Below are positions 24,626 through 42,319 of a stretch of DNA of 64,000 nucleotides, one piece after another. The stretch is taken from the NCBI GenBank assembly GCA_021739765.1, contig JAIPBD010000009.1, forward strand, positions 99,711-163,710, in the 5' to 3' direction. The notes beneath the pieces were generated by a model, which was not told the DNA's origin, did no database searches, and worked only from the letters and a program-made list of their open reading frames with translations. The number at the start of each line of letters is the position of its first letter. The stretch's first letter is position 1. A program made the translations under genes and the position numbers. Source of the DNA: Melioribacteraceae bacterium. Its GTDB lineage: Bacteria > Bacteroidota > Ignavibacteria > Ignavibacteriales > Melioribacteraceae.

Positions 24626-25604
24626 AGTTAGTAACTATTTAACCTCACTTGGAAAAGGACAAATAGTAAATTTTATTAAATAAAAAGATTAGCTAACAAA
24701 GTGAGAAAAGTAGAGTAATTAGTTCATCTTTTTTATCTGGCTAAGAACGAACAAAAAATCCTTTTGAAATTGAGTTCCGAAACACCTTTGTCTGTAATAA
24801 TTGAGCCTTTTTTATCAGACACAACCAAGAATTTACAAGTCGATACGGCCACATCAAAGTCCAGATTAGTTTCGTTGAGTGCTGATACCAAGGGGGTAAT
24901 CCTTTTAAAGCAATGAAGTAGTTTTAATTATTCCGGTTGTGAATACGTTATGAACTGTCTGTATGTTGTTGTATTTAAGGGGTTTTGCCTGTCCGCCGAG
25001 GCCGGGAAAGGGGGTAACGCGATCCATTCAAATCCATCGGTTATGAGTTGAAAATTCTCTATCTGGAAGGCTGGTGACTAAAAAATGACGAACAGCTTCA
25101 CTATATTATTGTTGGTCAGAATTTAAACTGTTTTATTACATCTAGTTATCGAGAAAATGAAGTGCCAATAAGTGAAATAAAATTCAAATATAATCTCATA
25201 AATATAAATATGAGATAGGTTACACAAACAATACTAATCTGCAAATTTAGTAATTGGAACTCCATAAATATTTTGTGAAATTGAATCTGATATTATCCTT
25301 TAATAACTTGCAGAGTTATTTTTGTTCTTTTACTCATTTTTCGGAACCAAAACTTAGAATAAACCTTTCAAAGTAGCTCCAAATCCATAAAATCATTATG
25401 GCATTATAATTGATTAAATGGGACTAATATTGATTTGATTTTAGGCGTTTGTCAAGAATAAAAACAGATATCAAAGTTTTGATATCTATTAAGTATAAAA
25501 TATAGATATAATCGTACCCGGTAAAAATTATTTTGAATCTGGATCGATTGCAGATAGTCAAATACGAACTGATAAACGATTGTTTAAATACCGGAAAATT
25601 GGTT
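24626..25604. other. Long non-coding region with possible gene remnant and degenerate repeat
   Basis: This 979-base stretch has no convincing intact gene. On the minus strand 24733-24924 reads as an open, protein-like fragment ('LDFDVAVSTCKFLVVSD', 'SIITDKGVSELNFKR') without a good start, possibly a decayed gene end. Bases about 24940-25050 resemble, imperfectly, the intergenic sequences near 33.7 kb and 37.3 kb. The last 300 bases are very AT-rich and probably hold the promoter for the downstream secreted-protein genes. Confidence 0.5.
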
Positions 25605-26450: not shown

Positions 26451-28168
26451 AAAAATTCACAAAACTTTTTGCAAAACTTATCATCATTTTATTGATTTTT
26501 ACTAATTGTGAGCATAGCACTACACCTCAGAGTGGAGATGATGGGAAGAATGATCCGCCGTATGATACCGGTCTGGATAGAGATAAGGAACTTCAAACAA
26601 TCGATATAACGCCCAAAGATTTGTCTCTAATAACACTGTCGGATCAAAATATAAATCTTCTTAATAGAGTAATGCTTTATGATTATATCCCTCCGGTAAG
26701 AAGTCAGGAAAATTACGGAACCTGCGCAGCTTGGGGAGCCGGATATTACGCCCGAACAATTATGTATGCACGAGAAAATAATCTGTCAAAAACCGATCTC
26801 GAAAATGATGCAAACGTATTTAGTCCTAAGTATTTGTTTTTATCGACCGAGTATCGAGGGGAAAACTGTTATGGGGCAAATCCATTTTACGTAATGAAAG
26901 CATTGCAAGATAAAGGAATTGCAACATGGTCCACTGTTCCCTACGATGATCTCGGAAATTGTTCTCAGAATACTACCGGTGACTGGGATAACGAAGCTGC
27001 GAATTATAAGATTGAAAATTTCAGATCCGTTGATCCTACTGATCACAATGCTTTAAAAATGTATTTAATGATGGGAAGACCGGTACAACTCAGTTGTAAT
27101 CTTGGACTAAATTTCTTTTCCACCAAAGACGAAGTTATTTATGACGATGATTATTCATCGGAGCCATCAGAGCATATGTACCATTCAATGTGTCTTGTTG
27201 GGTATGACGATGAAAAGGGAGCTAGCGGAGCTTTCCGTATCGTTAATTCGTGGGGTGAAAACTGGGGTGATAATGGATTTGTCTGGGTGGACTATAATTT
27301 CTTTTCCGATAAACTTTGTTATATGGCATATGTAATCGAGGGAGACAAGGGTGGATTAAGTGAAGCGATGGTGGATGAAAAAGTTATTAATCCTAATTTT
27401 AGAGTAGATGGCGATGACCTTCTTACGATTCAATTTAAAGACGAATCGGATCCTCATGGTGATGAAAAGCAGGATCGTGTTCTCACATACAATATATTCA
27501 ATAGGGGAAGTAAAACCATAAATGCATCTGACGATTGGAATATAGTTTATTACTACTATAACGCATTTAATCCAGAGGGCGATTTTGGTGTTATTCTGTA
27601 TGATTATTACACCGACGATGTCGGCTCAGAATTTTATGGAAAAAATGATGACTTCGATAATGTTGATGTTCCTATGGATAAATACGGGATATTTAATTGG
27701 TGGAACTATGTTGACGTCCCGGCCGGGTGGTCTGTCGCAAAAGCAGTTTATTCCGATGACGGGTCCGATTACGATTTCGAATTTTCTTACACAATTCCCA
27801 ATCTTACGGGGGATTACTATTTCGTTCTCATGGCTGATGGATTTAATAATATTGAAGAACAATACGAACAGAACAATTTTGTTTTCTTTACAGATGAAAA
27901 CCGTAAGCCATTAAAAATTGAAAATGGTATAATTCAGAATGAAACACTTCATAAAGGGAAAGAACAGTCTAGCCATGCAGGTGAAATGAAGAGATCCCAG
28001 CCCAATGCATATAATATCGAAGAAATTTCAGCGCTTATAAATTATCAAAAAAGAAACGGAATTTTAGAAGCTGCTGCTAATAAAAATAAATCACTCACGA
28101 AGAAACACCCAAAAAATTCACATTATGGAAAAAAAATTGTGAAGGCTGTCTTGAATAGGGAAATGTAA
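26447..28168 (+). CDS. Papain-family (C1) cysteine peptidase, lipoprotein
   Basis: This 573-residue protein has a lipoprotein signal ending 'IFTNC', with lipidated Cys21. The C1 peptidase domain spans about 78-300: 'PPVRSQENYGTCAAWGAGY' gives Gln87 and nucleophile Cys93, 'EHMYHSMCLVGYD' gives His246, and 'FRIVNSWGENWGDNGF' gives Asn267. It lacks a recognisable propeptide. The C-terminal part (about 320-500) is beta-rich, with 'TYNIFNRGSKTINAS' and 'NNIEEQYEQNNFVFF', resembling CARDB-type adhesion modules, followed by a basic tail. It would act anchored in the periplasm or on the surface. Targets are unknown; neighbouring secreted proteins are candidates. Confidence 0.85.
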   Translation: MKKFTKLFAKLIIILLIFTNCEHSTTPQSGDDGKNDPPYDTGLDRDKELQTIDITPKDLSLITLSDQNINLLNRVMLYDYIPPVRSQENYGTCAAWGAGYYARTIMYARENNLSKTDLENDANVFSPKYLFLSTEYRGENCYGANPFYVMKALQDKGIATWSTVPYDDLGNCSQNTTGDWDNEAANYKIENFRSVDPTDHNALKMYLMMGRPVQLSCNLGLNFFSTKDEVIYDDDYSSEPSEHMYHSMCLVGYDDEKGASGAFRIVNSWGENWGDNGFVWVDYNFFSDKLCYMAYVIEGDKGGLSEAMVDEKVINPNFRVDGDDLLTIQFKDESDPHGDEKQDRVLTYNIFNRGSKTINASDDWNIVYYYYNAFNPEGDFGVILYDYYTDDVGSEFYGKNDDFDNVDVPMDKYGIFNWWNYVDVPAGWSVAKAVYSDDGSDYDFEFSYTIPNLTGDYYFVLMADGFNNIEEQYEQNNFVFFTDENRKPLKIENGIIQNETLHKGKEQSSHAGEMKRSQPNAYNIEEISALINYQKRNGILEAAANKNKSLTKKHPKNSHYGKKIVKAVLNREM

Positions 28169-28229
28169 TTATAGTATTGAATACATAGTAAGCATTGAGA
28201 CCAATTTATTAAAATAGAGGTGAATCCAC

Positions 28230-29141
28230 ATGAAAGGGGAACTTAAATACGTCAACTCCATCATCATACTTGTATGTCTTTTTTCTAATATGAGCTTCGG
28301 ACAAATCACTTCCACCGATACTGAGATGGCAAAAGCAGTTGCAAAGAATGCTATTAAAGATGGGGATGATATCAAGTTTGGAATTGGTATGATGAATTAT
28401 GGTTTGAAATCTTCGAACGGATCAGTAACGGGAAGTAACTACAACACGCTGAATACCTATTCAATTTTCGGTGCATACAACTACAAAACTTCATTTATGG
28501 ATAAAATTTATATCGAATACGATTTCCAGCTGGGGAAAAAATTTTTTAAGCAGGATGGTATGGAAGGTGATGAGATCAATATTCTTACTTGCGACAGTTA
28601 TACACACTATTTCTTTGCTATCCCTCTCACCCTAACATATCATCATCTTGAGGATGATTTAATGCACCTTAGCTACAGTTTCGGAGTGTTTTGGGAGTTC
28701 GCGGGGATGGGAGAATTTAAGAATGAAAAAGGTACCAGATCGGCGGGATACGCTGGATATGATATAAATGGATTTGATTGGGGATTAAATTTTGGCGCAG
28801 AGTTCAGTTATTATGGAGCATTTATTGGTACAAATTACTCGTTCGGCTATAAAAACCTAGCTGGAGAATCAGCCGCCGGTTGGGAGCTGAAAAACAACGG
28901 TCAGCTAACAGTTAGTGCCGGCTTCCGTTTCTCTACCCTTTTCGGAGAAGACCTAATAAAATTGATATTGCCAGGTGGAAAAGAATCAGATGAAGAGCTG
29001 ACAAAAGGTGAAATTAATGGACGTGAGCCAAAAGGTGAAGTTGAGGACGTGAAGAAAGGTAAAACTGATAATGGGGATAAAAAAGATGAAAACAATCAGA
29101 AGAATAGCGAGAACGAAAAGGGTAATGGATGGGCAAAATGA
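28230..29141 (+). CDS. Outer-membrane beta-barrel-like protein with charged C-terminal tail
   Basis: This 303-residue protein has a signal peptide ending 'NMSFGQ'. Residues about 45-245 alternate in the way of transmembrane beta-strands, with aromatic-rich segments ('FGAYNYKTSFMDKIYIEYDF', 'YTHYFFAIPLTLTYHHL', 'FGAEFSYYGAFIGTNYSFGY', 'LTVSAGFRFSTLFG'). The last 60 or so residues are highly charged and disordered (rich in Lys, Glu, Asp, Asn). The ATG is preceded by AGGTGA. Its end overlaps the ricin-type gene by four bases. It may be an outer-membrane protein that holds or exports its neighbour; that is inference. I do not recognise a family. Confidence 0.6.
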   Translation: MKGELKYVNSIIILVCLFSNMSFGQITSTDTEMAKAVAKNAIKDGDDIKFGIGMMNYGLKSSNGSVTGSNYNTLNTYSIFGAYNYKTSFMDKIYIEYDFQLGKKFFKQDGMEGDEINILTCDSYTHYFFAIPLTLTYHHLEDDLMHLSYSFGVFWEFAGMGEFKNEKGTRSAGYAGYDINGFDWGLNFGAEFSYYGAFIGTNYSFGYKNLAGESAAGWELKNNGQLTVSAGFRFSTLFGEDLIKLILPGGKESDEELTKGEINGREPKGEVEDVKKGKTDNGDKKDENNQKNSENEKGNGWAK

Positions 29142-29725
29142 AAAAATTAACTTATTTAATTATTCTAATAATTATATCACAAGGATTACTTTTTGCACAG
29201 AAACGAGGGAAAAAAGTTGAGCTTAATCTGGAAGCTGGACCATACTATATTAAGAGTGTTGCGAGTGGCAGAATTCTCGATATTCCGGGATACGCTTCTA
29301 ATGCCCATAAGAAAAACGGCTCTAATGTCCAACTCTGGGAGCTTGATGACGGTGCCGATAGAAAAGTAAAATTTATTCCAACGGAAAATGGATATTACTC
29401 AATTCGTTTTCAGCATGCAAAAATGAATCTCGATGTTCATGGTTGCTACGACAGCAAGTGGTTCTGCTGGACTTATAAAAGAGATAAAGGTGCGAATGTA
29501 CAGATTTGGAAGGCTGGCAATTCGAAACCTCAGCAATGGAAAGTAGAGCAAGTCAATCCTGGTCAGTTCAGAATTCAAAACAGATACTCAGGGAAATATC
29601 TTGATGCCGATGCAAACAATATCAATAAAAATGGATGCAACGTTCTGCAGTGGACTTGGAACGGAAGGGATAACCAGCTTTGGGAAATAGTTGATGTTGA
29701 AAGCGGACAGAAATATCAAGAGTAA
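29138..29725 (+). CDS. Secreted ricin-type beta-trefoil lectin-like protein
   Basis: The start at 29138 overlaps the preceding stop as ATGA. The 195-residue product has a signal peptide ending 'LLFAQ' and one ricin B-like domain (RicinB_lectin_2 type). It shows repeated units 'YYIKSVASGRILDIPG', 'GSNVQLWEL', 'GANVQIWKAG', 'PQQWKVEQVNPGQFRIQNRYSGKYLDAD', 'NVLQWTWNGRDNQLWEI', that is three lobes with the Q-x-W signature. It probably binds sugar or a protein partner outside the cell. Related trefoil domains appear in four further proteins downstream. Confidence 0.82.
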   Translation: MKKLTYLIILIIISQGLLFAQKRGKKVELNLEAGPYYIKSVASGRILDIPGYASNAHKKNGSNVQLWELDDGADRKVKFIPTENGYYSIRFQHAKMNLDVHGCYDSKWFCWTYKRDKGANVQIWKAGNSKPQQWKVEQVNPGQFRIQNRYSGKYLDADANNINKNGCNVLQWTWNGRDNQLWEIVDVESGQKYQE

Positions 29726-29814
29726 GTGATTTTAACAAAATTTGGGTTTCGTGAAAAATTTAAAAAACAACCAAATCAGTATGGTTTATCAATAATCAAA
29801 TGGAAATAAGTTAT

Positions 29815-30435
29815 ATGAAGAATTTAATAATTTTATTTGGAATAATTTTAGTTACTGCTTTTTCCGGTTGTTCAAAAGAACCGGCAAGCAATGTAAAAGA
29901 TGCTTTAGAAAATGAGATTAAGCCCCCAAACGAATTCATATTCGCGGATGATTTATTAGCTCTTGATAGTCATTCTCAGTTAGAGAAAATTTTCGGAATG
30001 GAGAATCTCTCAATAAGTGAAGAATGGTTTGAAGAAGGAACAGTTAAGAAGTCTCAATCTAAAATCTATCCTAACACAAAAAATGAGATATCGATCACTT
30101 GGAAGGAAAACGAGAAAGATATTAAATCAATTTCCTTCAGCTCAATAGACTCAAAATGGAAGCTGAAGAATGGATTATTTGTGGGAATGTCTTTAGAGGA
30201 TTTGGAAAAAATAAATGATAAATCAATCTCTTTTTATGGTTTTGGCTGGGATCAGGGAGGATTAATTGATTTCAATGAAGGAGTGCTCGCAAGTCAACGA
30301 TTACAAGTATATCTCTCCTTTCCCGAAGACGGGTGGGAAAATCTTATGGGAGATCGAAAATTTCAAGCCAACTCGAAAAAGGCGGAATCTGCCGAGTTGA
30401 GAATTGGGGAAATAAAATTGTTCCCAACTGAATAA
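29815..30435 (+). CDS. Hypothetical lipoprotein
   Basis: This 206-residue protein has a lipoprotein signal ending 'TAFSGC' and then 'SKEPASN'. The mature part has alternating short strands and helices ('FIFADDLLALDSHSQLEKIFG', 'ISITWKENEKDIKSISFSS', 'GLFVGMSLEDLEKIND'). The last pattern resembles small periplasmic domains that compute on 'GMSLEDL.K.NG' loops, but I cannot name one. It lies between the lectin-like genes and is probably co-transcribed with them. Confidence 0.65.
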   Translation: MKNLIILFGIILVTAFSGCSKEPASNVKDALENEIKPPNEFIFADDLLALDSHSQLEKIFGMENLSISEEWFEEGTVKKSQSKIYPNTKNEISITWKENEKDIKSISFSSIDSKWKLKNGLFVGMSLEDLEKINDKSISFYGFGWDQGGLIDFNEGVLASQRLQVYLSFPEDGWENLMGDRKFQANSKKAESAELRIGEIKLFPTE

Positions 30436-30536
30436 AATTAAAATTCGGGATTTTGATCTTAATTGAATTCCACTACCCGAACTATAACTATGAGCAGTAC
30501 GAAAAAAGAATAAAAATTTAGTTGAGAGGGAAAACA

Positions 30537-33500
30537 ATGAAACAAATTGTAAAAATTATTCTTGTCGCTGTAGCATTATCATCAATACTGAATGCGCAGA
30601 ATGACAATGACTTAATTCCGAAAGACAAAGTATTTTATATTCAATCGGCAATTAATTACGGGAAAGATAACAAAGGATTCTGGGATCTTCCCGGTGAAAA
30701 AGATTTTGCCCTTAATCAGCAGTTCAAGGTTTGGGAATATAACATACCAGAGAAGAAAAACTATTTCCAATTTAGTACTGATGTTGATGGTGATAGGAAA
30801 ATTAAATTTTTCACTGCAAAGAATAGCGAATATATTGAAATGAGACTTGCTGGGGTTAATGCGTTTGTTGAGGTGTACAAAGGAGATGATAAGAATGGAA
30901 CAAATATTGTCATAAATGAAAAGAACAATAATTCATCTCAGAATTTCAGATTCGTTTATGTGAACGAGGGGGGATTCAAAATCTATAACGAAAATAGTAA
31001 AATTTTACAGTTGGAAGATCAAAACTCGAATAACGGCAGCAAGATTGTCCTCGGGGATGATAACGACGGCACCCATACTGAATGGGTTCTAATTTCGGAT
31101 GAAACAAGAAAACCTCTATCTTTTCCAAACAAACCGAAAATTGAAAGCAGACAGGAAGGCTGGGCGGATATGAGCGGAATCGGCCGTTTTATTGTTCAGT
31201 CTGTTAATAACTACGGTAAAAACCGGGGCGGGTGCTGGGATATTTCAGGCAACGACGACCCCAAAAAAGGGGACAATATTCAGGTTTGGGATTTAAGCGG
31301 AGTTGCTCCGGACCGTGTGTACTCGTTGGAAGAAGCTCAAAATAAAGCTTATTATAACATAATTGTCGGACCTTCTCTCGGCAGTGATGTTGTTGTTGAT
31401 CTTCATGGAAATAAATATAGAAACGGTTCTAATATTGGAACCTGGGAGCCGGGCAATTCTCCTGCCCAAAATTTCTACTTTAAACATCTAGGTGGTGGAA
31501 AATTCAAAATATATAATCAAAATAATAAAATTTTATCTCTCGATAACAGCTCATCCAAGAATGGCAGTAACGTTCAAATCTGGCAGGATCATGATGCGGA
31601 GGGAACCGGATGGTACCTTTTAGATTCGGAAACATTAAATCCATTTATTCCTTATCCGGTTCCATCAGACCTAAGCAAAATAAAAAGCGGAAATATGCCG
31701 GGAGAAGAATCGAAAAAACTGGCTGCCAGTATTGATAAAACCTATAAAGAAGTAATTAAGACTGAAAGCAGATTAGAAGCATTGAATAAGAAAGCTGACA
31801 AAGCGAGAAAGGTTTTGCAAAAAACGAAAACCGCTTCAACAGAAATTAATGGTTTGAATACAAAGGTCGCGCGAGCATACGATGTTATCGCTGCGTTTCA
31901 GAGACTGCCGATAATCGGTACACCGGCAACTGTTTTGGCAACTACTCTTACACAAGTTAAAGGCAAATTAGACAAAACAAATACGACGGTAAAAAATCTG
32001 GAAAAATCTATGCTTGGGCCGACCTTAAATGGTGTTTACAACGCGAATGAGGCTATGTATTCGTTTGAAAGAAATTTAGTGGTTGTAAGCAAAGACATAA
32101 TGACTGCAAAAGTGAACTACAGCAGTGCTGCAGCGTGTATTATAAACAGCGGGGACCAGAATGTAACTACAGTTTTTGAAGATAAATCTCGTGAAGCAAA
32201 TGCCCAGTTGACAACAGTTAATAATTCACTTGTTGAAATAAATAAAAACATTGATGAATTGGAGAAACTGTTCAGTTCTGTTTCAAATCTTGATGGCAAA
32301 CTTAAACCGGTTGAAAAAGCAATTCACGAAATCGAAAAAGCTTTTAAAGCAGCCGATAAAGTAGCAAATGAGATTAATAAAGTTCTCGATAAGAGGCTCA
32401 AGAAAAAAGTTCTCGGTGTAGGTGTTGATATCTCATTAAAAGATGCTCTGAATGTTGGGAAGAAATACACAAAAAAAGTTACTGAAAAAATAAATGATTG
32501 GGTTGGTGCAGCTCTGAAACCTGTTCTTAAAAAACTGAACATTAAAATCCCGGATATAAATATTGACGGATTAAAAAATGAACTTGATAAATTAAACATG
32601 GTTTCCAACGAGCTTGAAAAACAGAAGAAAGAAATATCTGAAAAAATAACTAATGTAAAAGATCTCCGTGAAAAACTAAATAATAGTCTGGATGGCTGCT
32701 TATCTGTTCCACCGTGTGAAAGCAATGGTGAAGTTGACTTAAATGAAATTTATGCAGAGAAGAAAACTGAATCAGTTTCCCAGATTGGTAAAGTTTATAA
32801 TCCCGTTTTTACCGAAACTACTTATGATTTCATTTTCAATATCGAAACGAAAAAACCATTGGAATTAATTAGAAAGGGTGATGTAAAAACCGGATCGGGC
32901 TACAATGGATCTGAGGAGCAGAAGTTCCAAATTTCACACCAAAAAGATGGATATTACAATCTATTTAATACATCGTCCATGAATGTTGTGACAGTTGAGG
33001 ACGGAAGCTTCAATGAAGGCGCAAATGTTGTTCCTGCTGCCTGGTCAAGTTCTGATAATCAGTTATTCGCGATTGTTAGAGATACGACGAAATACAGATA
33101 TGCCGCCTTTTTAATAGCAAGACATAGCGGAATGGCACTGGCAGTAAATGAGAAAGGAAGTGTTGTTCAGAAAACCTTCAATCCTGATGATAAATCTCAG
33201 ATTTGGGCGTTCTCAAAGAAGATGGCATGGAAGAACGACAAGGGATATTTAGGCATTGAAAACAGCAATGGAGCAATTTCCACAACTAAAGTCGGCTGGA
33301 ATTACATTATTCACCCGACTTTGAAAAACGCATATTACATTATGAACGCAAAGACATACAATATTTTTCAAACTGAAGAAAAGTACGATGAAAATAATTT
33401 GCTGGCGTCATATAATCTGATTGAAGCACCCTACAAAAAGGGGACGGGTACATCCATGCTCTTTTATATGAACTACAGCGATGATTCAAGAAAGAAAGTG

Positions 33501-33626
33501 AATTTAATTGAAGTATTTACAAGATATGTAATCGACTGCGATGCAGCAAGTAATTTAATTTTAAATCCGAAGGAGAAAGCGTCAACCTCTTCAGCTTGGG
33601 AAATGGTTGAGGCGCCACTTGATTAG
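30537..33626 (+). CDS. Large secreted trefoil-trefoil-helical rod-trefoil protein
   Basis: The ATG at 30537 follows GAGAGGGAAA and gives a 1029-residue protein with a signal peptide ending 'SILNAQ'. Domains in order: ricin-type trefoil 1 (about 28-187, Asn-Gly-rich lobes such as 'NGSKIVLGDDNDGTHTEWVL'), trefoil 2 (about 212-365, 'NGSNVQIWQDHDAEGTGWYLL'), a long helical region (about 388-720) with heptad-like Lys/Glu pattern and the motif 'KPVLKKLNIKIPDI' (661-674), then a C-terminal trefoil-like region (about 755-1029, 'RYAAFLIARHSGMALAV', 'KSQIWAF'). A less polar segment 'IAAFQRLPIIGTPATVLATTL' (451-471) lies inside the helical part. The three genes at 33848-37179 carry the same modules separately. 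Function unknown. Confidence 0.75.
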   Translation: MKQIVKIILVAVALSSILNAQNDNDLIPKDKVFYIQSAINYGKDNKGFWDLPGEKDFALNQQFKVWEYNIPEKKNYFQFSTDVDGDRKIKFFTAKNSEYIEMRLAGVNAFVEVYKGDDKNGTNIVINEKNNNSSQNFRFVYVNEGGFKIYNENSKILQLEDQNSNNGSKIVLGDDNDGTHTEWVLISDETRKPLSFPNKPKIESRQEGWADMSGIGRFIVQSVNNYGKNRGGCWDISGNDDPKKGDNIQVWDLSGVAPDRVYSLEEAQNKAYYNIIVGPSLGSDVVVDLHGNKYRNGSNIGTWEPGNSPAQNFYFKHLGGGKFKIYNQNNKILSLDNSSSKNGSNVQIWQDHDAEGTGWYLLDSETLNPFIPYPVPSDLSKIKSGNMPGEESKKLAASIDKTYKEVIKTESRLEALNKKADKARKVLQKTKTASTEINGLNTKVARAYDVIAAFQRLPIIGTPATVLATTLTQVKGKLDKTNTTVKNLEKSMLGPTLNGVYNANEAMYSFERNLVVVSKDIMTAKVNYSSAAACIINSGDQNVTTVFEDKSREANAQLTTVNNSLVEINKNIDELEKLFSSVSNLDGKLKPVEKAIHEIEKAFKAADKVANEINKVLDKRLKKKVLGVGVDISLKDALNVGKKYTKKVTEKINDWVGAALKPVLKKLNIKIPDINIDGLKNELDKLNMVSNELEKQKKEISEKITNVKDLREKLNNSLDGCLSVPPCESNGEVDLNEIYAEKKTESVSQIGKVYNPVFTETTYDFIFNIETKKPLELIRKGDVKTGSGYNGSEEQKFQISHQKDGYYNLFNTSSMNVVTVEDGSFNEGANVVPAAWSSSDNQLFAIVRDTTKYRYAAFLIARHSGMALAVNEKGSVVQKTFNPDDKSQIWAFSKKMAWKNDKGYLGIENSNGAISTTKVGWNYIIHPTLKNAYYIMNAKTYNIFQTEEKYDENNLLASYNLIEAPYKKGTGTSMLFYMNYSDDSRKKVNLIEVFTRYVIDCDAASNLILNPKEKASTSSAWEMVEAPLD

Positions 33627-33847
33627 AAATAATCGAAAAATAGGTTGTTCCAAAATTCATTTTTCATTGAATGAACCCGTCTGCTTAAAGATTTCAGCCT
33701 GGGCAGGCGGAGTCGGTAAATTGTGGGGTAATCCAGTTTGGAATTCGTCGTAAAACACTCACGCCTGAAGATTTATTAGTATTTAAAATAAAATCATAGG
33801 TTTTCAATTCCACTTAAATTGAGTGTAAGAACATAAACGGAGTATCA

Positions 33848-34435
33848 ATGTCACAATTAAACAAATTATTATTAAAAATGACTTTACTAAGCTTGTTTTT
33901 TCTTTCGACTATTTACGCGCAGAGTAAGCTCGAAAAAGGTCTTTACGTTATTAGCAATATCGGCTTAATGAACAACAGTGCAGCGGATGCAAAGAAATAT
34001 CTAAATTTATCAAGCAAGATTAATTCTGCTGATGAAATTAAAAAGAAAAGTGTCCAGATAGTAATGGGCAAGGAATATTTGGACGCAACCGGACAACTGT
34101 ATCTGATTCCTGAAGGTGACGCATATCAGATTAAGGCTGTTTTCAACGATAAAAGCTGGGGAGTGCTTACGATCGAGGATACCTTCAAAAAAGAAGGTGC
34201 GAAATTGTTTGTGGAATATGATGAGATAAAAGCGGAAAATCAGATTATCCACAGGCAGAGATTCAGACTGGAGAAAACGAAGAGAGATTACTACCACATC
34301 CGTACACTTGACGGCAGATATCTGAAAATTGATAAGAATGCTGCCGTATTAACCTCTGAAACTCCCAACCCTAAGACCAACAATTTCTATGAATTTAGTG
34401 AATGGTTTATTGCTAAACCGAGGAATAGATTTTAA
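33848..34435 (+). CDS. Secreted ricin-type trefoil-like protein
   Basis: This 195-residue protein has a signal peptide ending 'LSTIYAQ'. The mature part looks like a single trefoil domain related to those of the larger neighbours: 'KGLYVISNIGLMNNS', 'YLIPEGDAYQIKAVFNDKSWGVLTIEDTFKKEGA' and 'HIRTLDGRYLKIDKNAAVLT'. The unit 'EDTFKKEGAKLFVEYDEI...RQRFRLEK' closely parallels 'EETFNKNGANFQIEKRVDL...RQRFSLIY' of the next gene. That points to local duplication of trefoil modules. Q-x-W motifs are poorly kept, so sugar binding is uncertain. Confidence 0.68.
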   Translation: MSQLNKLLLKMTLLSLFFLSTIYAQSKLEKGLYVISNIGLMNNSAADAKKYLNLSSKINSADEIKKKSVQIVMGKEYLDATGQLYLIPEGDAYQIKAVFNDKSWGVLTIEDTFKKEGAKLFVEYDEIKAENQIIHRQRFRLEKTKRDYYHIRTLDGRYLKIDKNAAVLTSETPNPKTNNFYEFSEWFIAKPRNRF

Positions 34436-34473
34436 TTATTTATGAAATTTTCGAAAATTAATAGGACTTTATA

Positions 34474-36135
34474 ATGAAGCAAATTTTAGCTGTAATTCTT
34501 TTTTGTCTGTTATTGGCACACGTCCATTCTTATGGGCAAATAGCGCCTACGGGCAAATGGCTTTGGATTCAGAGCGCTGCTGAGGTTGGAGAATCGGAAC
34601 TGGGATATTTTGACGTCCCCGGAAAAATTGCGGGAATTGGAGCAAACGAAATACACAATGTTACTGTATATGAAATTGACGGTGGAACAGACCGCCAGTA
34701 TCAGGTAATTCATGTAAAAGATGATAAATATCAGATCTACGCCGGACATTCCGGTGAGACCCATGTTTTGAAAATGGAGGAGACGTTCAATAAAAACGGG
34801 GCCAATTTTCAAATTGAAAAAAGAGTTGACCTCGGAGATAAAGATATATTCAACAGACAGCGCTTTTCGCTTATTTATCAGGGGGCAGGCGCATGGAAAA
34901 TCTACAGCGATGATGGAAGGATTATCTGCCTGGATGGAAAATCTTCTAAAAACGGTACCAATGTTCATCTTTGGGAGGATCACAAAGGGCTCTGGACCGA
35001 ATGGGTTTTCATCGACCCTCAGTCAAAAAAAATTATCTACCCGGAGATTGCTAATAATCTAAATCATATTTCCGTCGGAGGAAAGATCAAGAATCCGGTC
35101 GCAAACGCCACAATTAAATCGATTGATGATACTCATCTTCAACTTTACAACGCTGAAAGAGAGCTTTTTAAATATTTGCCGAAGATCAGTGAATCGAAGA
35201 AAATTATAGACCAAACAAGCCATTTCAGCAGTAAATTTGATAGACTGAACACCGAAGTGAGCAGGCTGGAAGAAGTACTAACAGCCTTCAACAGAATTCC
35301 GGTTATCGGTAAAGCTACTTTAGTTCTTTCAAAAGGTGTAGGCATGATTGCTTCCCCCGTTGGAAAAGTAAACATAGCCATAGCTAAAACCGATGAAGAA
35401 GTAGTTTCACCCGCGCACGGATCTGTGCATGCTGCCGATAATTCAATTGTCGACTATGAAAAAGAACTGGTTCAGTTGATGTACAAACTGGAAAAGATGA
35501 AAGAAATTTATATTACAGCCGCTCTTGCTGTTGAAGATGATAAAACCGCGCTGATCTCATTCAATCAGAATTCAGAGAAACTTAACGCGGTATTGAAAGC
35601 AGTTCCTAATGAGCTTGAACTGATTATAAATGAGCTTTCGAAAATCGACAATATGACAAAAGATCTTAAGAAGATTGAAAAAACTGCAAATGCGCTGGAT
35701 AAGGGAATTACTAAATTTGAAAAAGTATTTCATGAAATAGATAAGGTCGGAAAAGAAGTGGATAAGGTACTATCGGCCGAGTTCGACGCGAAAGTAGTAA
35801 AGTTGAGCTTGAAAAAAGCACTTACAGGAAGTGTTCTCCCAGATGAAGTAAAAGATAAATTCAAGAAATGGTCAGATGGTCTTATTAAGCCACTTATCAA
35901 AAAACTCAATATAAAAATTCCAGAAGTTCCCGGTGTAGATGAATTTAAGAACGAAATTAAAATTATTGAGAATAAGATTGCATCAGTGAAGCAAAGCAGC
36001 GTAAAACTTGAGGAAAGCAGAAGAACAATACCTGCTATTTCGGAAGGATTGGAAGCTCCTTTTCTCAGCTGCCTTCAGGCGGTTCCATACGATAAGATGG
36101 TAAAATTCAAATTAGTTGATAAAAGTGAATATTAA
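34474..36135 (+). CDS. Secreted trefoil plus helical-rod protein, paralogue of the N-terminal part of the 30537 product
   Basis: This 553-residue protein has a signal peptide ending 'HVHSYGQ'. A trefoil domain (about 27-186, 'GKWLWIQSAAEVG', 'NGTNVHLWEDHKGLWTEWVFI') is followed by a helical region (about 205-535). The helical part aligns with residues about 388-720 of the 30537 product: 'LTAFNRIPVIGKATLVLSKG' matches 'IAAFQRLPIIGTPATVLATT', and 'KPLIKKLNIKIPEV' matches 'KPVLKKLNIKIPDI'. It stops where the larger protein continues into its C-terminal trefoil. The next gene supplies that part. Confidence 0.72.
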   Translation: MKQILAVILFCLLLAHVHSYGQIAPTGKWLWIQSAAEVGESELGYFDVPGKIAGIGANEIHNVTVYEIDGGTDRQYQVIHVKDDKYQIYAGHSGETHVLKMEETFNKNGANFQIEKRVDLGDKDIFNRQRFSLIYQGAGAWKIYSDDGRIICLDGKSSKNGTNVHLWEDHKGLWTEWVFIDPQSKKIIYPEIANNLNHISVGGKIKNPVANATIKSIDDTHLQLYNAERELFKYLPKISESKKIIDQTSHFSSKFDRLNTEVSRLEEVLTAFNRIPVIGKATLVLSKGVGMIASPVGKVNIAIAKTDEEVVSPAHGSVHAADNSIVDYEKELVQLMYKLEKMKEIYITAALAVEDDKTALISFNQNSEKLNAVLKAVPNELELIINELSKIDNMTKDLKKIEKTANALDKGITKFEKVFHEIDKVGKEVDKVLSAEFDAKVVKLSLKKALTGSVLPDEVKDKFKKWSDGLIKPLIKKLNIKIPEVPGVDEFKNEIKIIENKIASVKQSSVKLEESRRTIPAISEGLEAPFLSCLQAVPYDKMVKFKLVDKSEY

Positions 36136-36159
36136 TAATTTTTGAAAATAGGTGATTAA

Positions 36160-37179
36160 ATGAAGCAATTAATTTTTCTGATATTCTTCGGATTATCAAT
36201 AATAGCTAACGCGCAGTTTACTGGCGGGACATTTTCGAACTTCTTTAATATTTCTACCGGGGCGCTGGTATATAATCCCGGTGGAGAAGCAGTTGAATCG
36301 CCCGGCTCCGAAGTGGCGGAGAAACTGGCACTTAAAGTTTTTAGGGGCTACGGGAGAGTTCCGCTTCCACCTCTTAATCCACATTTTAGATGTATGCCAT
36401 ATGAAAAAGCAATATCTGATTACATTTTTGAAGAGGATAAAGACCGGAATAAATGGACATTTGAACATATCTCGGATTCGCAATATGTAGTAGTGAACAA
36501 GAAGTTCAATGTTGCATTAACAGCCAAAGGGGAAACAGAAATTGTACCTGAGCCTTTCGAACAGGGCAATCAGAACCAGATCTTTATTATCTCTCGTGTA
36601 CTCAAGGATTTCCGGTACGCTCTCTACCTTAAAACTAAATCGGGTGAGACCGCTGTAACCAGCAATGCATCAGGCAGTCTGGTGTATCAGCGACCATTTG
36701 TTAAAGGGAACAGAAATCAAATGTGGGTAATGGCGAATAGATACAGCTTGACTAGTGCTGAAACAGGTAAGCTTTTAGCTCCGCCAGAAGTTGAAACCTT
36801 TAAGCCTGGTCTTGTATTGGAAGCAACGCAGAAATGGGCGGGCAAAGCCATAGCGGATTGGGATATAATCAACCATCCACTGGCCAAAGGATGGTGCTTT
36901 CTACAGCATGTGCAGTCGGGTTTATTTTTCGCTTACCCGAAATCGGAAGCTTCCACAACAACTGGCGCTTTAGGACTGAATGCCTATCTTATGGACTATA
37001 GAAACGATTATAACTTGGTATTCGTATTTTGGACGTCGCCAAAGTTCACGAAAGGCGCGCATATTATTGTCTATCCAACCGAGGAATGTATGTCTGTATC
37101 TGAAAAGGGAATAATCGGTGAGAAATATGACGGTCCAAACGCAACAAAATCACAGCTTTGGGTTTTTGAAGTCCGATAG
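36160..37179 (+). CDS. Secreted trefoil-like protein, paralogue of the C-terminal part of the 30537 product
   Basis: This 339-residue protein has a signal peptide ending 'SIIANAQ'. It aligns with residues about 755-1029 of the 30537 product, for example 'DFRYALYLKTKSGETAVTSN' against 'KYRYAAFLIARHSGMALAVN' and 'NRNQMWVMA' against 'DKSQIWAFS'. Tandem trefoil-like repeats ('NQNQIFII', 'NRNQMWVM', 'TKSQLWVF') are visible. It follows the 553-residue gene by 24 bases and precedes a strong terminator, so it is the last gene of the cluster. Confidence 0.72.
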   Translation: MKQLIFLIFFGLSIIANAQFTGGTFSNFFNISTGALVYNPGGEAVESPGSEVAEKLALKVFRGYGRVPLPPLNPHFRCMPYEKAISDYIFEEDKDRNKWTFEHISDSQYVVVNKKFNVALTAKGETEIVPEPFEQGNQNQIFIISRVLKDFRYALYLKTKSGETAVTSNASGSLVYQRPFVKGNRNQMWVMANRYSLTSAETGKLLAPPEVETFKPGLVLEATQKWAGKAIADWDIINHPLAKGWCFLQHVQSGLFFAYPKSEASTTTGALGLNAYLMDYRNDYNLVFVFWTSPKFTKGAHIIVYPTEECMSVSEKGIIGEKYDGPNATKSQLWVFEVR

Positions 37180-37207
37180 AGGTTTAGTAGCCGTGAAGTT
37201 TCAAAAA

Positions 37208-37238
37208 AAATCCCAACTTTTTCAAAAAGTTGGGATTT
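37208..37238 (+). terminator. Symmetric hairpin terminator after the trefoil cluster
   Basis: AAATCCCAACTTTTT and AAAAAGTTGGGATTT form a 15-base inverted repeat with a one-base centre. The arms end in A and T runs, so it could work in either direction. It lies 29 bases after the stop of the last trefoil gene. Confidence 0.75.
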
Positions 37239-37648
37239 AATATCAAGTTAGATTTCCATGCCTTTTTTTTGCCGGCCCCATTCTAAATTTAAGAGTAGAT
37301 GAAAGAACTCTTTGTAAATACGTCGAGAAATGTCGGTAAGATGTTGTTATTAAAGGGATTTGCTTGAACGCAGAAGGAATGACAGAGAGAGGTGAATTGA
37401 TTCTGTCCATCCAAATCATTAAAAAACAGACTAAAAACTGACTCAGAAGTTTAGAATTTAACAGTGACACGGGCACCGGCAAGTAGAAAGAAAAAATATA
37501 GTATATTCGCAAGAAAATGAGTACTCAATTATCGGTTTTGAGTTTACTTCCGATGGTTTGCATTTTCAGGTTAGAAGCAAGATTAAGTTCAGATATTAGC
37601 ATAAGAGATAAAAGTAAAATTGTGAAAATTTAGTAAGAAGAAAGTTAT
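37239..37648. other. Intergenic region with degenerate repeat
   Basis: I see no credible gene in these 410 bases. Bases about 37310-37410 share scattered identity with about 24940-25050 and less with about 33660-33740. The right end should hold the promoter of the beta-helix/propeller gene, but I cannot place it with confidence. Confidence 0.45.
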
Positions 37649-40603
37649 ATGAAGCAGAAAACAATTCTAATCTTTCTAATCATCATTGCAATCACTCTAA
37701 TAATAGAAGCGCAATCAGTGTATGACCAGAGGTGTGAGGATGAAGGTGCGTTATATTTTACTGAAGCAAATTTTGATATTAAAGCAAATGGAATGAATGA
37801 TGTCTCAGAAGCACTTCAATTTGCTATAAATAAACTAAAAAAGGAAAAGAATTTTGGGATACTTTTTATCCCGGAAGGGCAGTATCTCATCAGTAAAACA
37901 ATTTATATTCCTAAAGCAATTCGTTTGATAGGATATGGAAAAAATCGCCCTGAGTTCATTCTTGGCAAAAGTACTTCAGGCTTCTCCGATGAAAATAATT
38001 ACATGTTTTGGTTTACCAGCAATTTGGTGGAAGACGGAGAGTTGCCGAGGGATGCAAGCGCAGGCACATTTTATAGTGCCATTTCAAATATAAATTTCCG
38101 TATTGAAAAAGGAAATCCAAAGGCAATTGCGCTTCGCACTCATTTTGCTCAGCATAGTTTTGTTAGTCATTGCAACTTTTATATAGGTGATGGGTTCGCT
38201 GGAATTTACGATTTAGGAAATGAAATCGAAGATCTCAAATTTTATGGTGGTGAGTATGGAATCTCCTCTTCCCGAACATCTCCCGGATGGCCCATGATGA
38301 TGCTTGATCTGTATTTTGAAGGACAGCGTAAAGCAGCTGTTCTTAGCCGAAATACCGGGATGACAATTGTTTCGATGCATGTAAAAAATACTCCGGTCGC
38401 TGTTGAACTTCAACATGGAGTTGCGGACAGATTATTCATGGAAAACTGTCTGTTCGAAAATGTGGAAAAAGGTGTAATTGTAGGTGTTGAAAAAGAAGCC
38501 GGCAGCCAAATTAATTTACTAAATATTATATGCAATAATGTTGATTTCCCAATACATTTCTCACCGAGCGGAACAAACATTATAGGTAAGGGAGATCAGT
38601 ACATTATTAACAACTTTGTTTATGGTTTGGTCATGGAAGATATGGCCGATGATTCCGAATATAAAACTATAACCGATATTGTAGAAACTGATATTGTGCC
38701 AAAAAAATTGAAAAAAGTAATACCCGATCTTCCTTCAATGAAAACCTGGGTAAATGTCAAAGATTTTGGAGCTCTCGGTGATGGTATAACGGATGATACC
38801 CGTGCAATCAAAAAGGCTATTGCCAGCCATAAAAATATATATTTCCCAACCGGATGGTTTCGTGTTACTGAAACAATTAAACTGAACGAGGGATCTGTTT
38901 TAATTGGTCTGCATCCATATGCAACTCAGCTGATAATTGATGAAAGTGAGAATAATTTCAGTGGATTTGGATCACCGGTTCCTGTGTTAGAATCATCAGA
39001 AGGGGGGAGTGATATTGTAAATGGAATTGGTATAAATACCGGCGCTTATAACAATCGAGCAGTCGGAGTAAAGTGGATGGCAAATCATAATTCTATGATT
39101 AACGATGTGAAATTTGTTGGTGGGCATGGTAACATTTCAAAACCGGGAGAACCCACATATCGAAGAAACCGGGAAAATAAAATCAGTAGTCCTTCTCAGC
39201 CTGTTTATTCCCTCGGGATGGATGAGGCCTGGGATAATCAATATTGGAGTCTTTGGGTTACCAATAATGGCGGAGGAATTCTGAAAGATCTATGGTCTGC
39301 CAACACTTATGCAAGCGCAGGATTATACATAAGTAATACATCAACACCCGGAAAAGTCTATGCTATGTCTTTGGAGCACCATGTTCGACAAGAAGCTCGC
39401 ATCAACAAAGTGGCTAACTGGAATTTTTATGCTATACAATTTGAGGAAGAAGGCAGAGAAGGTAAAAAAGCTCAAACGCTGGATATCAGTGATTCCAAAG
39501 ATCTGACATTTGCAAATTTCTGGATGTATAGGGTAATTCGTGCAAACACTCCAAGACCTTGGGGAGTAAAAATTTCCAACAGTTTTAATTTAGATTTTAG
39601 GAATATGCGCAGCTGGACGCAAGTTTTACAATTACCAGAGCGCACGATTTTCGATATGGATAAAAACCTTATTGTTTATCCTGGAGATTTTGCGAGAGTA
39701 ACTATAACCGGTGAAGAAAAGCCCAACAAAAATGGGAACTTCAATAGTATAGCTGAGAAATTGGGCTTTGGTTATGAATTTGCAACCGGTGCTGTTTCTG
39801 ATAGTAAAGGAAATGTTTACTTTTGTGAAAACCGGCAGAAGCGTGTTTACAAATGGTCCACTGAAAGCAATTCAATTTCCATTTATGCCGATTACCCATT
39901 CAAACCTTTTTCACTCGCGGTAGATACCAAGGACAATTTGATTGTCATTTGTCGATACGATCCACAACCGGGTTTTAATCATTATGAGCAGCCGATTACT
40001 ATCGAAACATTGCCCGATAATAATCCATATTATAGTGGATGGGGGAACGGTGGCTGGTCAATAATGGCTTATGCAATTAATCCAAAAAAATCAGATGACT
40101 TTCACGCACTGAAGCTGGTGAAATCGAATGAAGTGAAAAATGTAGAGCGGGTATTTCATCCAACTCACAGATGGCGGAGCAATTTTGAGGCTGTTGTTAC
40201 AAGTATTTCTGAATTTAGTTTTGTTGCACCTGACAGTGTTACTATCATTCCCTACACTTTTGATCTTGGTCGTTCGGTGCAACTTATGGGAGTGGAGCCA
40301 AATCAGAAGAATCGTGTTTATGTAACACATGAGGATTCAAAAATCACCTACCGTTTTAATGTTGATGAAAATGGAGCTCTTTCTAATATGAGCGAATTTA
40401 TAACGCGTGGGGAGTTTAGTAATTTAGTTGACAGTCGTGGTAATTTGTATTTAGCCGAAGGCGAAATATTTGTTTTTGATAATGAGGGGAATAAAATAAA
40501 ACGAATTACTTTAGATGAACGCGTACATTCCATGGCGTGGGGTGGAAGAGATAAAAATGATCTGTTTGTAACTACAAGCAATGCCATTTATCGGATTAAA
40601 TGA
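37649..40603 (+). CDS. Secreted double beta-helix protein (pectate lyase superfamily/GH55-like) with C-terminal propeller
   Basis: This 984-residue protein has a signal peptide ending 'LIIEAQ'. Two pectate-lyase-3-type beta-helix starts are clear: 'DIKANGMNDVSEALQFAIN' with 'GILFIPEGQYLISKTIYIP' (about 45-90), and 'VNVKDFGALGDGITDDTRAIKKAI' with 'NIYFPTGWFRVTETI' (about 365-410). Tandem helices of this kind occur in GH55 glucanases and relatives. After about 700 the sequence becomes a propeller with NHL/gluconolactonase-like blades ('ATGAVSDSKGNVYFCENRQKRVYKW', 'SLAVDTKDNLIVICRYD'). It is probably a surface or periplasmic glycan-active protein. The GH32 gene follows. Confidence 0.72.
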   Translation: MKQKTILIFLIIIAITLIIEAQSVYDQRCEDEGALYFTEANFDIKANGMNDVSEALQFAINKLKKEKNFGILFIPEGQYLISKTIYIPKAIRLIGYGKNRPEFILGKSTSGFSDENNYMFWFTSNLVEDGELPRDASAGTFYSAISNINFRIEKGNPKAIALRTHFAQHSFVSHCNFYIGDGFAGIYDLGNEIEDLKFYGGEYGISSSRTSPGWPMMMLDLYFEGQRKAAVLSRNTGMTIVSMHVKNTPVAVELQHGVADRLFMENCLFENVEKGVIVGVEKEAGSQINLLNIICNNVDFPIHFSPSGTNIIGKGDQYIINNFVYGLVMEDMADDSEYKTITDIVETDIVPKKLKKVIPDLPSMKTWVNVKDFGALGDGITDDTRAIKKAIASHKNIYFPTGWFRVTETIKLNEGSVLIGLHPYATQLIIDESENNFSGFGSPVPVLESSEGGSDIVNGIGINTGAYNNRAVGVKWMANHNSMINDVKFVGGHGNISKPGEPTYRRNRENKISSPSQPVYSLGMDEAWDNQYWSLWVTNNGGGILKDLWSANTYASAGLYISNTSTPGKVYAMSLEHHVRQEARINKVANWNFYAIQFEEEGREGKKAQTLDISDSKDLTFANFWMYRVIRANTPRPWGVKISNSFNLDFRNMRSWTQVLQLPERTIFDMDKNLIVYPGDFARVTITGEEKPNKNGNFNSIAEKLGFGYEFATGAVSDSKGNVYFCENRQKRVYKWSTESNSISIYADYPFKPFSLAVDTKDNLIVICRYDPQPGFNHYEQPITIETLPDNNPYYSGWGNGGWSIMAYAINPKKSDDFHALKLVKSNEVKNVERVFHPTHRWRSNFEAVVTSISEFSFVAPDSVTIIPYTFDLGRSVQLMGVEPNQKNRVYVTHEDSKITYRFNVDENGALSNMSEFITRGEFSNLVDSRGNLYLAEGEIFVFDNEGNKIKRITLDERVHSMAWGGRDKNDLFVTTSNAIYRIK

Positions 40604-40605
40604 AA

Positions 40606-40629
40606 CCTAATTGCCTAAATTCAATTAGG
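40606..40629 (+). repeat. Hairpin element, copy 1
   Basis: CCTAATTG-CCTAAATT-CAATTAGG is a perfect 8-base stem with an 8-base loop, starting two bases after the stop codon. The same loop and a covarying stem occur after the GH32 gene at 42332. There is no T-run, so it is not a standard terminator. Confidence 0.6.
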
Positions 40630-40780
40630 ATTTATAGCAAAGTTGTTTGGAATTGTGACTTAGCATCTGAAAGGGAAATGCTGATCATTAACAATCAGAA
40701 TTAAAATATATGATTATGCTAAAAAGAAGTCTAAATTAAATAAACTATCTATTATAACTTTATTCAAACTTGTTAACTTA

Positions 40781-42319
40781 TTGAATCCACGAAAAAAAAA
40801 TAGTTTTTATAAAGAACAATACCGGCCACAATTCCATTTTACTCCTGAAAAGAATTGGATGAACGACCCAAATGGTATGTTTTATTTTGAAGGTGAGTAT
40901 CACTTATTCTACCAACATAATCCATTTGGTGATAAATGGGGACATATGAGTTGGGGGCATGCGGTTAGTACTGATATGCTGCATTGGGAGCATTTACCCA
41001 TTGCACTTCCCGAAGAGGATGGAGTCATGATTTTCTCAGGCAGTGCTGTGGTTGACTGGAATAACTCAAGTGGATTTGGTGAAGGTAATCAGCCACCTAT
41101 TGTGGCTATTTATTCAGGTAGAAGAAACTTTGATGACCGTCAATTCCAATGTTTAGCTTATAGTAATGATAAAGGTAGGGTCTGGGTAAAATATTCGAAT
41201 AATCCTGTTCTTGACATCGAATCAAATAATTTCCGTGATCCAAAAGTATTCTGGTATAAAGAAACGAAAAAGTGGGTTATGGTGCTCGCTTTGTCAATCG
41301 AAAGAAAAGTTCAATTCTATGGGTCTGAAAACCTAATTAATTGGGATTTGCTTAGTGAATTTGGTCCTGAAGGCGCGGTTGAAGGAGTTTGGGAATGTCC
41401 TGATTTATTTCAATTGCCTGTAATAAATGAGGAAGGTAAGAAAAAATGGGTGTTGGAAGTCGGCATAGGAATCGATAGTGTTGCCGGCGGCTCCGGGGGA
41501 CAATATTTTGTTGGTGAATTCGATGGTATAATGTTTAGTCCGGATTTAAATTATTCTGATGAAAATAACATAGATCATATAATTTTAGCAGATAGACCCA
41601 CTCACAAAGCGTTGGAAAAATGTAATTGGGTTGACTATGGCAAAGATTTCTATGCTGTAGTTAGCTGGTCTGATATCCCGAAAAGTGATGGAAGGAGATT
41701 GTGGCTCGGATGGATGAGCAATTGGGATTATGCCCAAGAAGTTCCTACCGCACCTTGGCGTTCGGTAATGAGTATCCCCAGAGAAATTAGACTTAAGAAG
41801 AATGATCAGAAATACTTCCTTGTTCAGCAGCCGGTTGAAGAATTAAAAAAATTAAGAAGCCTTATACTTGATGATTCCAATATAGATATTGATGAAATTC
41901 ATTCGATTTTAGTATCCTCAGATCTGTATGAAATGGAATGCGAAATTGTCAATCCAGAGCTGGCATCGTTAACAATCACATTTAATTCAACAGACGACGA
42001 ATTTACATCGCTTATGATTGATCCCCAAAATACAAAGATTGTATTCAATAGAGAAAACTCCGGAATTGTAGATTTCAATCCTACTTTTGCTGATCAGATG
42101 TCAGCGTGCAATGAATCATTAGACTATTCAAAAATGAAGATTCATGTTTTTATTGATAAATCCTCAATCGAAATATTTATAAACGATGGAATAATTGTTT
42201 TCACAAATGTTATATACCCGACTGAGATTCAGAAATCAATAAAATTTAGTTCCAAAGGCACAGGAATCAAATTAAGCCGCATGAGTCTGTGGAAACTCGA
42301 TTCCGTATGGAAAAATTGA
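40781..42319 (+). CDS. GH32 glycoside hydrolase (fructanase/levanase/invertase type)
   Basis: This 512-residue GH32 enzyme hydrolyses beta-fructosides. The five-bladed propeller carries 'WMNDPNG' (26-32, nucleophile Asp29), 'FRDP' (151-154, Asp153 stabiliser) and 'WECPDLF' (204-210, acid/base Glu205). A C-terminal beta-sandwich ends with 'HVFIDKSSIEIFINDG', typical of the family. The start is odd: no in-frame ATG precedes the domain, and the only upstream candidate is TTG at 40781 without a clear ribosome binding site. The frame stays open back to 40685 and reads a mildly hydrophobic stretch ('LSIITLFKLVNLL'). A signal peptide may have been lost to a frameshift after the out-of-frame ATG at 40716. 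Confidence 0.88.
   Translation: MNPRKKNSFYKEQYRPQFHFTPEKNWMNDPNGMFYFEGEYHLFYQHNPFGDKWGHMSWGHAVSTDMLHWEHLPIALPEEDGVMIFSGSAVVDWNNSSGFGEGNQPPIVAIYSGRRNFDDRQFQCLAYSNDKGRVWVKYSNNPVLDIESNNFRDPKVFWYKETKKWVMVLALSIERKVQFYGSENLINWDLLSEFGPEGAVEGVWECPDLFQLPVINEEGKKKWVLEVGIGIDSVAGGSGGQYFVGEFDGIMFSPDLNYSDENNIDHIILADRPTHKALEKCNWVDYGKDFYAVVSWSDIPKSDGRRLWLGWMSNWDYAQEVPTAPWRSVMSIPREIRLKKNDQKYFLVQQPVEELKKLRSLILDDSNIDIDEIHSILVSSDLYEMECEIVNPELASLTITFNSTDDEFTSLMIDPQNTKIVFNRENSGIVDFNPTFADQMSACNESLDYSKMKIHVFIDKSSIEIFINDGIIVFTNVIYPTEIQKSIKFSSKGTGIKLSRMSLWKLDSVWKN

What the first reader, a model, noticed from the sequence alone, without database searches (positions are those of the whole stretch)
30537..37179. One protein and the same protein in pieces, side by side
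The 1029-residue product of 30537 has the order trefoil-trefoil-helical rod-trefoil. The next genes encode a lone trefoil (33848), trefoil plus helical rod (34474) and a C-terminal trefoil (36160). The rods share 'KP(V/L)(L/I)KKLNIKIP' and the C-terminal parts share 'RYA..L....SG..A'. So a duplication has been followed by fusion or splitting, which implies that rod and C-terminal trefoil act together in one complex.
Basis: partly seen in the sequence, partly recalled or inferred. Interest (0 to 1): 0.75.

Follow-up and report, generated by a model that had tools for sequence, protein, structure and literature searches.

The report
Lectin-rod protein beside older loose parts
A bacterium carries, side by side, a large secreted protein that probably binds sugars and separate genes that resemble its parts; comparison with relatives points to the large protein having arisen by fusion of genes that were once separate, so the small genes are mostly older cousins and not fragments of it.

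Summary
The rods of genes 30537 and 34474 are clear homologues (27% identity, E 1e-53; 124 bits against at most 34.7 in 900 shuffles), and 36160 is homologous to the large protein's C-terminal part (E 1e-7). The interpretation needs correcting: the small genes are not the large protein in pieces. 36160 resembles a stand-alone secreted family found in four other genomes of its bacterial family, three without a detected rod; it scores 132 bits to that family, 54 to the fused domains. The fused domain starts near the stand-alone protein's signal-peptide cleavage site, so the large gene arose by fusion. Trefoil-rod 34474 groups with proteins of two other genomes, not its neighbour (98/98; sister grouping rejected, p 3e-6). 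Only the lone trefoil 33848 looks like a local duplicate. The rod is an undescribed family, solid in 9 of 165 genomes of the order; 6 of 13 rods are trefoil-trefoil-rod without C part, 2 carry another head. Rod and C-trefoil are thus not obligate partners, though they co-occur above chance; a lipoprotein family (29800) tracks the C-trefoil more closely. Likely role, inferred: secreted multivalent glycan-binding spacer. No structure prediction was possible.

The parts
29129..29725 (+). Secreted single ricin-type trefoil protein (198 aa); its start overlaps the end of the gene before it
   Evidence: PF14200 E 5.5e-33; ORFs
29800..30435 (+). Putative lipoprotein (211 aa; lipobox-like FSGC read by eye); relatives lie next to the C-trefoil or fused gene in two other genomes (G038, G004)
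   Evidence: no Pfam, NCBIfam or PDB match
30537..33626 (+). Large fused protein, 1029 aa: signal peptide, trefoil 1, trefoil 2, helical rod, C-terminal trefoil region
30624..31106 (+). Trefoil 1 of the large protein (approximate)
31182..31652 (+). Trefoil 2 of the large protein (approximate)
31659..32738 (+). Rod of the large protein
   Evidence: alignments A2/A4; periodicity of the aligned rods
32739..33623 (+). C-terminal trefoil region of the large protein, homologous to nearly the whole mature stand-alone C-trefoil protein
33848..34435 (+). Lone trefoil protein (195 aa), probably a local duplicate of the trefoil of the next gene
   Evidence: BLAST E 1e-7; grouping 80/90, not strong; shared extra loop before RQRF
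34474..36135 (+). Trefoil plus rod protein (553 aa), own signal peptide
   Evidence: groups with G036 and G010
35047..36132 (+). Rod of the trefoil-rod protein
36160..37179 (+). Stand-alone C-trefoil protein (339 aa), own signal peptide followed by FTGGTF
37208..37238 (.). 31-base palindrome just after the gene run, terminator-like; the scan called it on the - strand only

Best explanation
The run 29129-37179 makes a set of secreted (signal peptides read by eye) ricin-type trefoil proteins plus one putative lipoprotein. Two of them carry an undescribed helical rod. History (the better supported part): the 30537 product is a trefoil-trefoil-rod protein onto which the mature form of a stand-alone C-trefoil protein was fused, at or before the ancestor shared with two genomes of another genus (if inherited vertically). 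Next to it sit a trefoil-rod gene of another lineage, a probable duplicate of its trefoil, and a C-trefoil gene most like the stand-alone family. Function (inferred): the trefoils bind glycans, the coiled-coil-like rod is a spacer and probably an oligomerisation element, and the fused protein is a dumbbell with glycan-binding ends on both sides of a rod, able to bridge two glycan surfaces or to hold polysaccharide at the cell envelope. In the two-gene version the two ends are secreted apart and may or may not meet.
For: 36160 finds the stand-alone genes at E 6e-29 to 6e-23 but the large protein's C-domain only at 3e-5. It scores 132.4 bits over its whole length to the profile of four stand-alone genes and 54.0 bits to the profile of three fused domains; best of 200 shuffles 3.6 and 4.1. 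The 11-row tree puts it with the stand-alone genes 98/99 and the fused domains together 99/99. The fused domain aligns with the stand-alone protein from its signal-peptide cleavage site (by eye) to near its end, column 346 of 352 (hhalign 2.7e-27). Trefoil+rod tree: 34474 with G036 and G010 98/98, 30537 with G001 100/100, sister grouping of 34474 and 30537 rejected at p 3e-6. The commonest form among 13 rods is T-T-rod without C part, 6 of 13; two rods carry another head. The best hydrophobic periodicity of the aligned rods lies at 94-108 degrees per residue in 21 of 23 windows. Pfam trefoil hits. After a 470-base gap lie a pectate-lyase-like and a GH32 gene.
Against: Without the distant outgroup the C-domain tree is weak: a clade of 36160 with the fused domains is not rejected (p 0.289; with outgroup p 0.038), and 36160 has a very long branch. 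In the rod-only tree 34474 falls next to the 30537 lineage, without support (51/25). A pair 34474 + G036 alone is neither shown nor rejected (p 0.396 and 0.362). The periodicity had no shuffled control. No sugar binding, secretion or oligomerisation was tested. No structure model could be made. The polysaccharide enzymes lie beyond a 470-base gap.
Confidence: 0.6

Rival explanations
1. One reading: one ancestral gene was duplicated here and one copy was split into 34474 and 36160 (or the large one was fused from this very trio).
For: Homology, and the gene order rod then C-trefoil matches the domain order; genes 34474 and 36160 are only 24 bases apart; the unrooted 8-row C-domain tree does not exclude it (p 0.289); the rod-only tree puts 34474 beside the 30537 lineage, though at 51/25, so a duplication older than the split from G001 and G004 is possible.
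Against: 34474 and 30537 as sisters rejected (p 3e-6 with trefoil, 2e-5 rod only); 34474 with 30537 and G001 p 0.01; 36160 with 30537's C-domain as sisters rejected (p 9e-5); 36160 keeps the GGTF and a PG segment of the stand-alone family, which the fused G001 domain and the large protein lack.
Confidence: 0.12
2. The rod is a membrane-active module like the ClyA-type alpha-pore-forming toxins, with trefoils as receptor-binding heads and several paralogues in one operon.
For: Paralogous helical proteins encoded together; the most hydrophobic 19-residue stretch of the rod lies at one conserved place (columns 80-105) in 11 of 13 rods and is second best in the other two; lectin heads are known on other pore formers (PMC9468336, passages).
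Against: That stretch averages only 0.77-1.54 on the Kyte-Doolittle scale in those 11 rods, and shuffled rods equal or beat it in 172-474 of 500 trials; only one such stretch, where PMC6602965 (passages) describes two adjacent membrane-inserting helices; in the PDB profile search AhlC comes at E 0.036, 29th of 127 matches (60 shown), behind unrelated coiled coils.
Confidence: 0.1
3. The rods are passive envelope or matrix spacers and the trefoils no longer bind sugars.
For: The ricin-type motif is only partly kept, for example in trefoil 1 of the large protein and in 33848.
Against: A stretch LD..SS.NG.N..(L/I)W is kept in the trefoil before the rod in 34474 and in trefoil 2 of 30537.
Confidence: 0.18

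Closest known systems
Ricin-type beta-trefoil lectins (Pfam PF14200, PF00652)
   Same: Trefoil domains above a curated cut-off in 30537, 34474, 36160 and 29129
   Different: In 30537 and 34474 attached to an undescribed helical rod; Pfam shows no enzyme or known toxin module in these chains
Gene-fusion ('Rosetta stone') pairs, e.g. PMC3155505 and PMC4921024 (abstract starts in a search listing only)
   Same: A protein that is separate in some genomes is a domain of a longer protein in others
   Different: Fused and separate versions stand side by side in one genome, and the separate ones appear to belong to other lineages than the fused one
Pore-forming lectins such as SaroL-1 and CEL-III (PMC9468336, passages)
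   Same: Lectin (trefoil) domains joined to another module in one chain
   Different: Their pore module is aerolysin-type beta-sheet; here the module has helical periodicity
ClyA-family multi-component alpha-pore-forming toxins (PMC6602965, passages)
   Same: Paralogous helical proteins encoded together
   Different: No sequence match beyond coiled-coil noise, no clear hydrophobic head, and trefoil heads present

Membership tests
Ricin-type beta-trefoil lectin | Match above the Pfam curated cut-off | tested here: met
   30537, 34474, 36160, 29129 yes; 33848 no
Ricin-type beta-trefoil lectin | Glycan binding | not testable with these tools
   No assay; motif only
Gene fusion (Rosetta stone) of rod and C-trefoil | Separate homologues of both parts exist in other genomes | tested here: met
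   T-T-rod without C part in G052, G010, G111, G112, G133 (two); stand-alone C-trefoil in G047, G031, G038, G010
Gene fusion (Rosetta stone) of rod and C-trefoil | Parts always occur together (the strict form of the inference) | tested here: not met
   Rods in 6, C-trefoil in 7, both in 4 of 80 genomes of the family; assemblies are incomplete, e.g. G038 82%
ClyA-family alpha-pore-forming toxin | Hydrophobic head able to cross a membrane | tested here: inconclusive
   One conserved mildly hydrophobic stretch, not above shuffles
ClyA-family alpha-pore-forming toxin | ClyA-like helical bundle fold | not testable with these tools
   Structure prediction switched off; sequence search at noise level
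Aerolysin-type pore-forming lectin | Beta-sheet pore module next to the trefoil | tested here: not met
   The module has helical periodicity and no Pfam match above a cut-off outside the trefoils; by sequence only

The most novel reading that the evidence does not exclude
The rod is a new secreted, head-swapping module (two trefoils, one trefoil, or a repeat head that looks like a propeller) of a glycan-targeted machine. This genome keeps a one-chain and a two-chain version of it side by side, with a lipoprotein as a frequent partner of the C-trefoil (for example an anchor, or a protector if the rod is membrane-active).
Probability: 0.12. Interest if true: 0.65.

Novelty: new variant of a known kind. 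Interest (0 to 1): 0.35.

Why it matters
It is a small case in which a fusion can be placed relative to its parts, and it warns that 'the same protein in pieces' next door can be older cousins. It also points out an undescribed helical rod family that carries interchangeable heads, and gives a testable partner: the 29800 lipoprotein family, which goes with the C-trefoil (p 2.5e-4 by genus) more tightly than the rod does (p 0.024).

Tried and rejected
Alpha-pore-forming reading: hydropathy and PDB profile search did not support it. Mobile element as the cause of the arrangement: the 221-base spacer 33627-33847 is single-copy in the genome apart from a 24-base match, and of the 26 direct-repeat families in 28000-40000 the 20 shown are at most 53 bases long. 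Defence-system reading: for 30537 PADLOC gave only matches inside the rod, LmuB and JetC at E 1.5e-5 or weaker, and for 34474 DruC at 0.06, which I take for coiled-coil chance. Conserved outer-membrane partner: the 28230 gene has no relative at E 1e-3 in the 79 other family genomes. Plasmid relatives of 34474: none at E 1e-3. Named relatives in genome contigs: none in two scans, which reach close relatives only, so the organisms are unnamed here. Papers: searches; the terms Ignavibacter + ricin + lectin gave 0 papers; that lineage was my guess from memory and the taxon was not determined.
Full report
Observation. Each product starts with a signal peptide, mostly ending in AQ or a similar site (read by eye; no predictor was run). 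Pfam finds ricin-type trefoils above the cut-off in all but the 195-residue lone one, whose best match is a sub-threshold Fascin. BLASTP joins 30537 residues 209-726 with 34474 residues 20-538 at 26.8% and E 1e-53, 30537 residues 796-1019 with 36160 at 22.5% and E 1e-7, and the lone trefoil with that of 34474 at E 1e-7. As rods are prone to chance coiled-coil matches I ran controls: the real rods score 124 bits, the best of 900 shuffled rods 34.7 and the reversed rod 20.0.

Distribution of the rod. A search with 34474 found matches in 7 of 80 genomes of the same family; one of these, G005, has only a trefoil. A rod profile found 11 of 165 genomes of the order at E 1e-3, two of them (G139, G162) weak partial matches. 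In samples of 295 genomes of the class and 395 of the phylum, at E 1e-6 and with only the best 5-6 candidates of a genome scored, rods were found only in genomes already seen, plus one weak partial match in each (G251, G212). The 9 solid genomes hold 13 rods: 6 in trefoil-trefoil-rod proteins without C part (G052, G010, G111, G112, two in G133), 2 with C part (the window's 30537 and G001, the latter with a run of X near its end, by the contig end), 1 in pieces (G004: a first trefoil at the end of another contig, probably of the same gene, and a frame break between rod and C part), 2 trefoil-rod (window 34474, G036) and 2 with a different N-terminal head of W-containing repeats that look like a propeller by eye but match no Pfam family at E 0.1 (G010). 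No Pfam or NCBIfam family covers the rod above its cut-off, and PADLOC gave only weak matches. Profile-profile comparison relates the three rod types (E 5e-51, 3e-28, 3e-17).

Distribution of the C-trefoil. Full-length stand-alone homologues of 36160, each with its own signal peptide followed by F.GGTF, lie in G047, G038, G010 and G031 (E 6e-29 to 6e-23); the fused domains of G001, G004 and 30537 are weaker (E 2e-10, 1.5e-8, 3e-5). G047, G038 and G031 have no rod at E 1e-3; they are 99%, 82% and 99% complete. G036 and G052 have rods but no C-trefoil; the G036 rod gene ends about 340 bases before the contig end, so a neighbour cannot be seen there. In the alignment the fused domains of G001 and G004 keep a segment like the stand-alone protein's ADDLVGDLFG..GL, and the fused domains of G001 and 30537 start with an F-T-E segment where the stand-alone protein has F.GGTF. 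hhalign of the two groups starts at the signal-peptide cleavage site (by eye) and runs to column 346 of 352. This is what fusion of a mature protein to the end of a rod gene would leave.

Trees. C-domain, 11 rows: 36160 with the stand-alone genes 98/99; fused domains together 99/99; 36160 as sister of the 30537 domain rejected, p 9e-5; 36160 with all fused domains p 0.038. Without the three distant rows the last is not rejected (p 0.289), and 36160 has a long branch (2.86 and 3.07), so its place rests also on profile scores (132.4 against 54.0 bits) and on the GGTF and PG segments. Last trefoil plus rod, 10 rows: 34474 with G036 and G010 98/98, 30537 with G001 100/100; 34474 and 30537 as sisters rejected, p 3e-6; 34474 with 30537 and G001 p 0.01. 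G004 and the two other-head proteins of G010 were left out of that tree, as they lack the trefoil in the same piece. In the 13-row rod-only tree 34474 falls beside the 30537 lineage without support (51/25), a result against the above but unsupported. Trefoils, 22 rows: the lone trefoil with that of 34474, 80/90, on a long branch, and both share an extra loop before RQRF. The groups tested were chosen after seeing the similarity searches.

Partnership. In the 36 genera of the family, rods occur in 5, C-trefoils in 6 and both in 3 (p 0.024); the 29800 lipoprotein family occurs in 4, all among the 6 with C-trefoils (p 2.5e-4), and with rods in 3 of 4 (p 0.005). By genome the lipoprotein is in 6 of 80, of which 5 have a C-trefoil; G005 does not. 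It lies directly beside the C-trefoil or fused gene in the window, in G004 (convergent) and in G038 (divergent), but on other contigs in G001 and G010. Against a strict link: with the G004 lipoprotein as query, one weak match (G009) and six genomes of one genus of the second family are added; these have no C-trefoil match and no C-trefoil or rod in the stretches held around those six. Counting weak matches on both sides over the 69 genera of the order gives p 0.0011. These p values ignore relatedness between genera.

Mechanism. Shown: homology, domain order, distribution, and a best hydrophobic periodicity of 94-108 degrees per residue in 21 of 23 aligned rod windows (104-108 in 13), as helices and coiled coils give; the two exceptions start at columns 243 and 257 (no shuffled control was run for this). 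Inferred: glycan binding, spacer role, oligomerisation, bridging of two glycan surfaces. A conserved mildly hydrophobic turn at columns 80-105 is the most hydrophobic stretch in 11 of 13 rods, but is no more hydrophobic than shuffled rods often give, so I do not file the rod with pore formers.

Literature. PMC6602965 and PMC9468336 were read as found passages only; other papers only as search listings. Trefoil-fold facts not cited are recalled.

Noticed in passing
window 29800-30435; L021:2457-3104; L073:3256-3909: An unnamed lipoprotein family lies beside the C-trefoil or fused gene in three genomes, each time in a different orientation, and goes with the C-trefoil across genera of the family.
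   Followed up: partly
L023:13001-14875 and L025:7825-9702: Two proteins of G010 carry the same rod under a head of about 50-residue W-rich repeats with no Pfam match at E 0.1.
   Followed up: partly
L026:8727-9476: In G005 the relative of trefoil 1 of the large protein stops where an ISL3-type transposase gene lies on the other strand; no rod was found in that genome.
   Followed up: partly
L021:1404-1547: In G004 the reading frame breaks between rod and C-trefoil, so even a fused gene can look split; real or an assembly error, not decided.
   Followed up: partly
window 26447-28168 and 25533-26450: A papain-like cysteine protease and a pentapeptide-repeat protein, both with signal-like N-terminal stretches, precede the trefoil genes.
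   Followed up: no
window 37649-42319: A pectate-lyase-like protein with an SGL-type C-terminal region, then a GH32 gene, follow the trefoil genes after a 470-base gap.
   Followed up: no
window 28230-29141: A secreted protein gene (outer-membrane-like by eye) that overlaps the first trefoil gene has no relative at E 1e-3 in the 79 other genomes of the family.
   Followed up: yes
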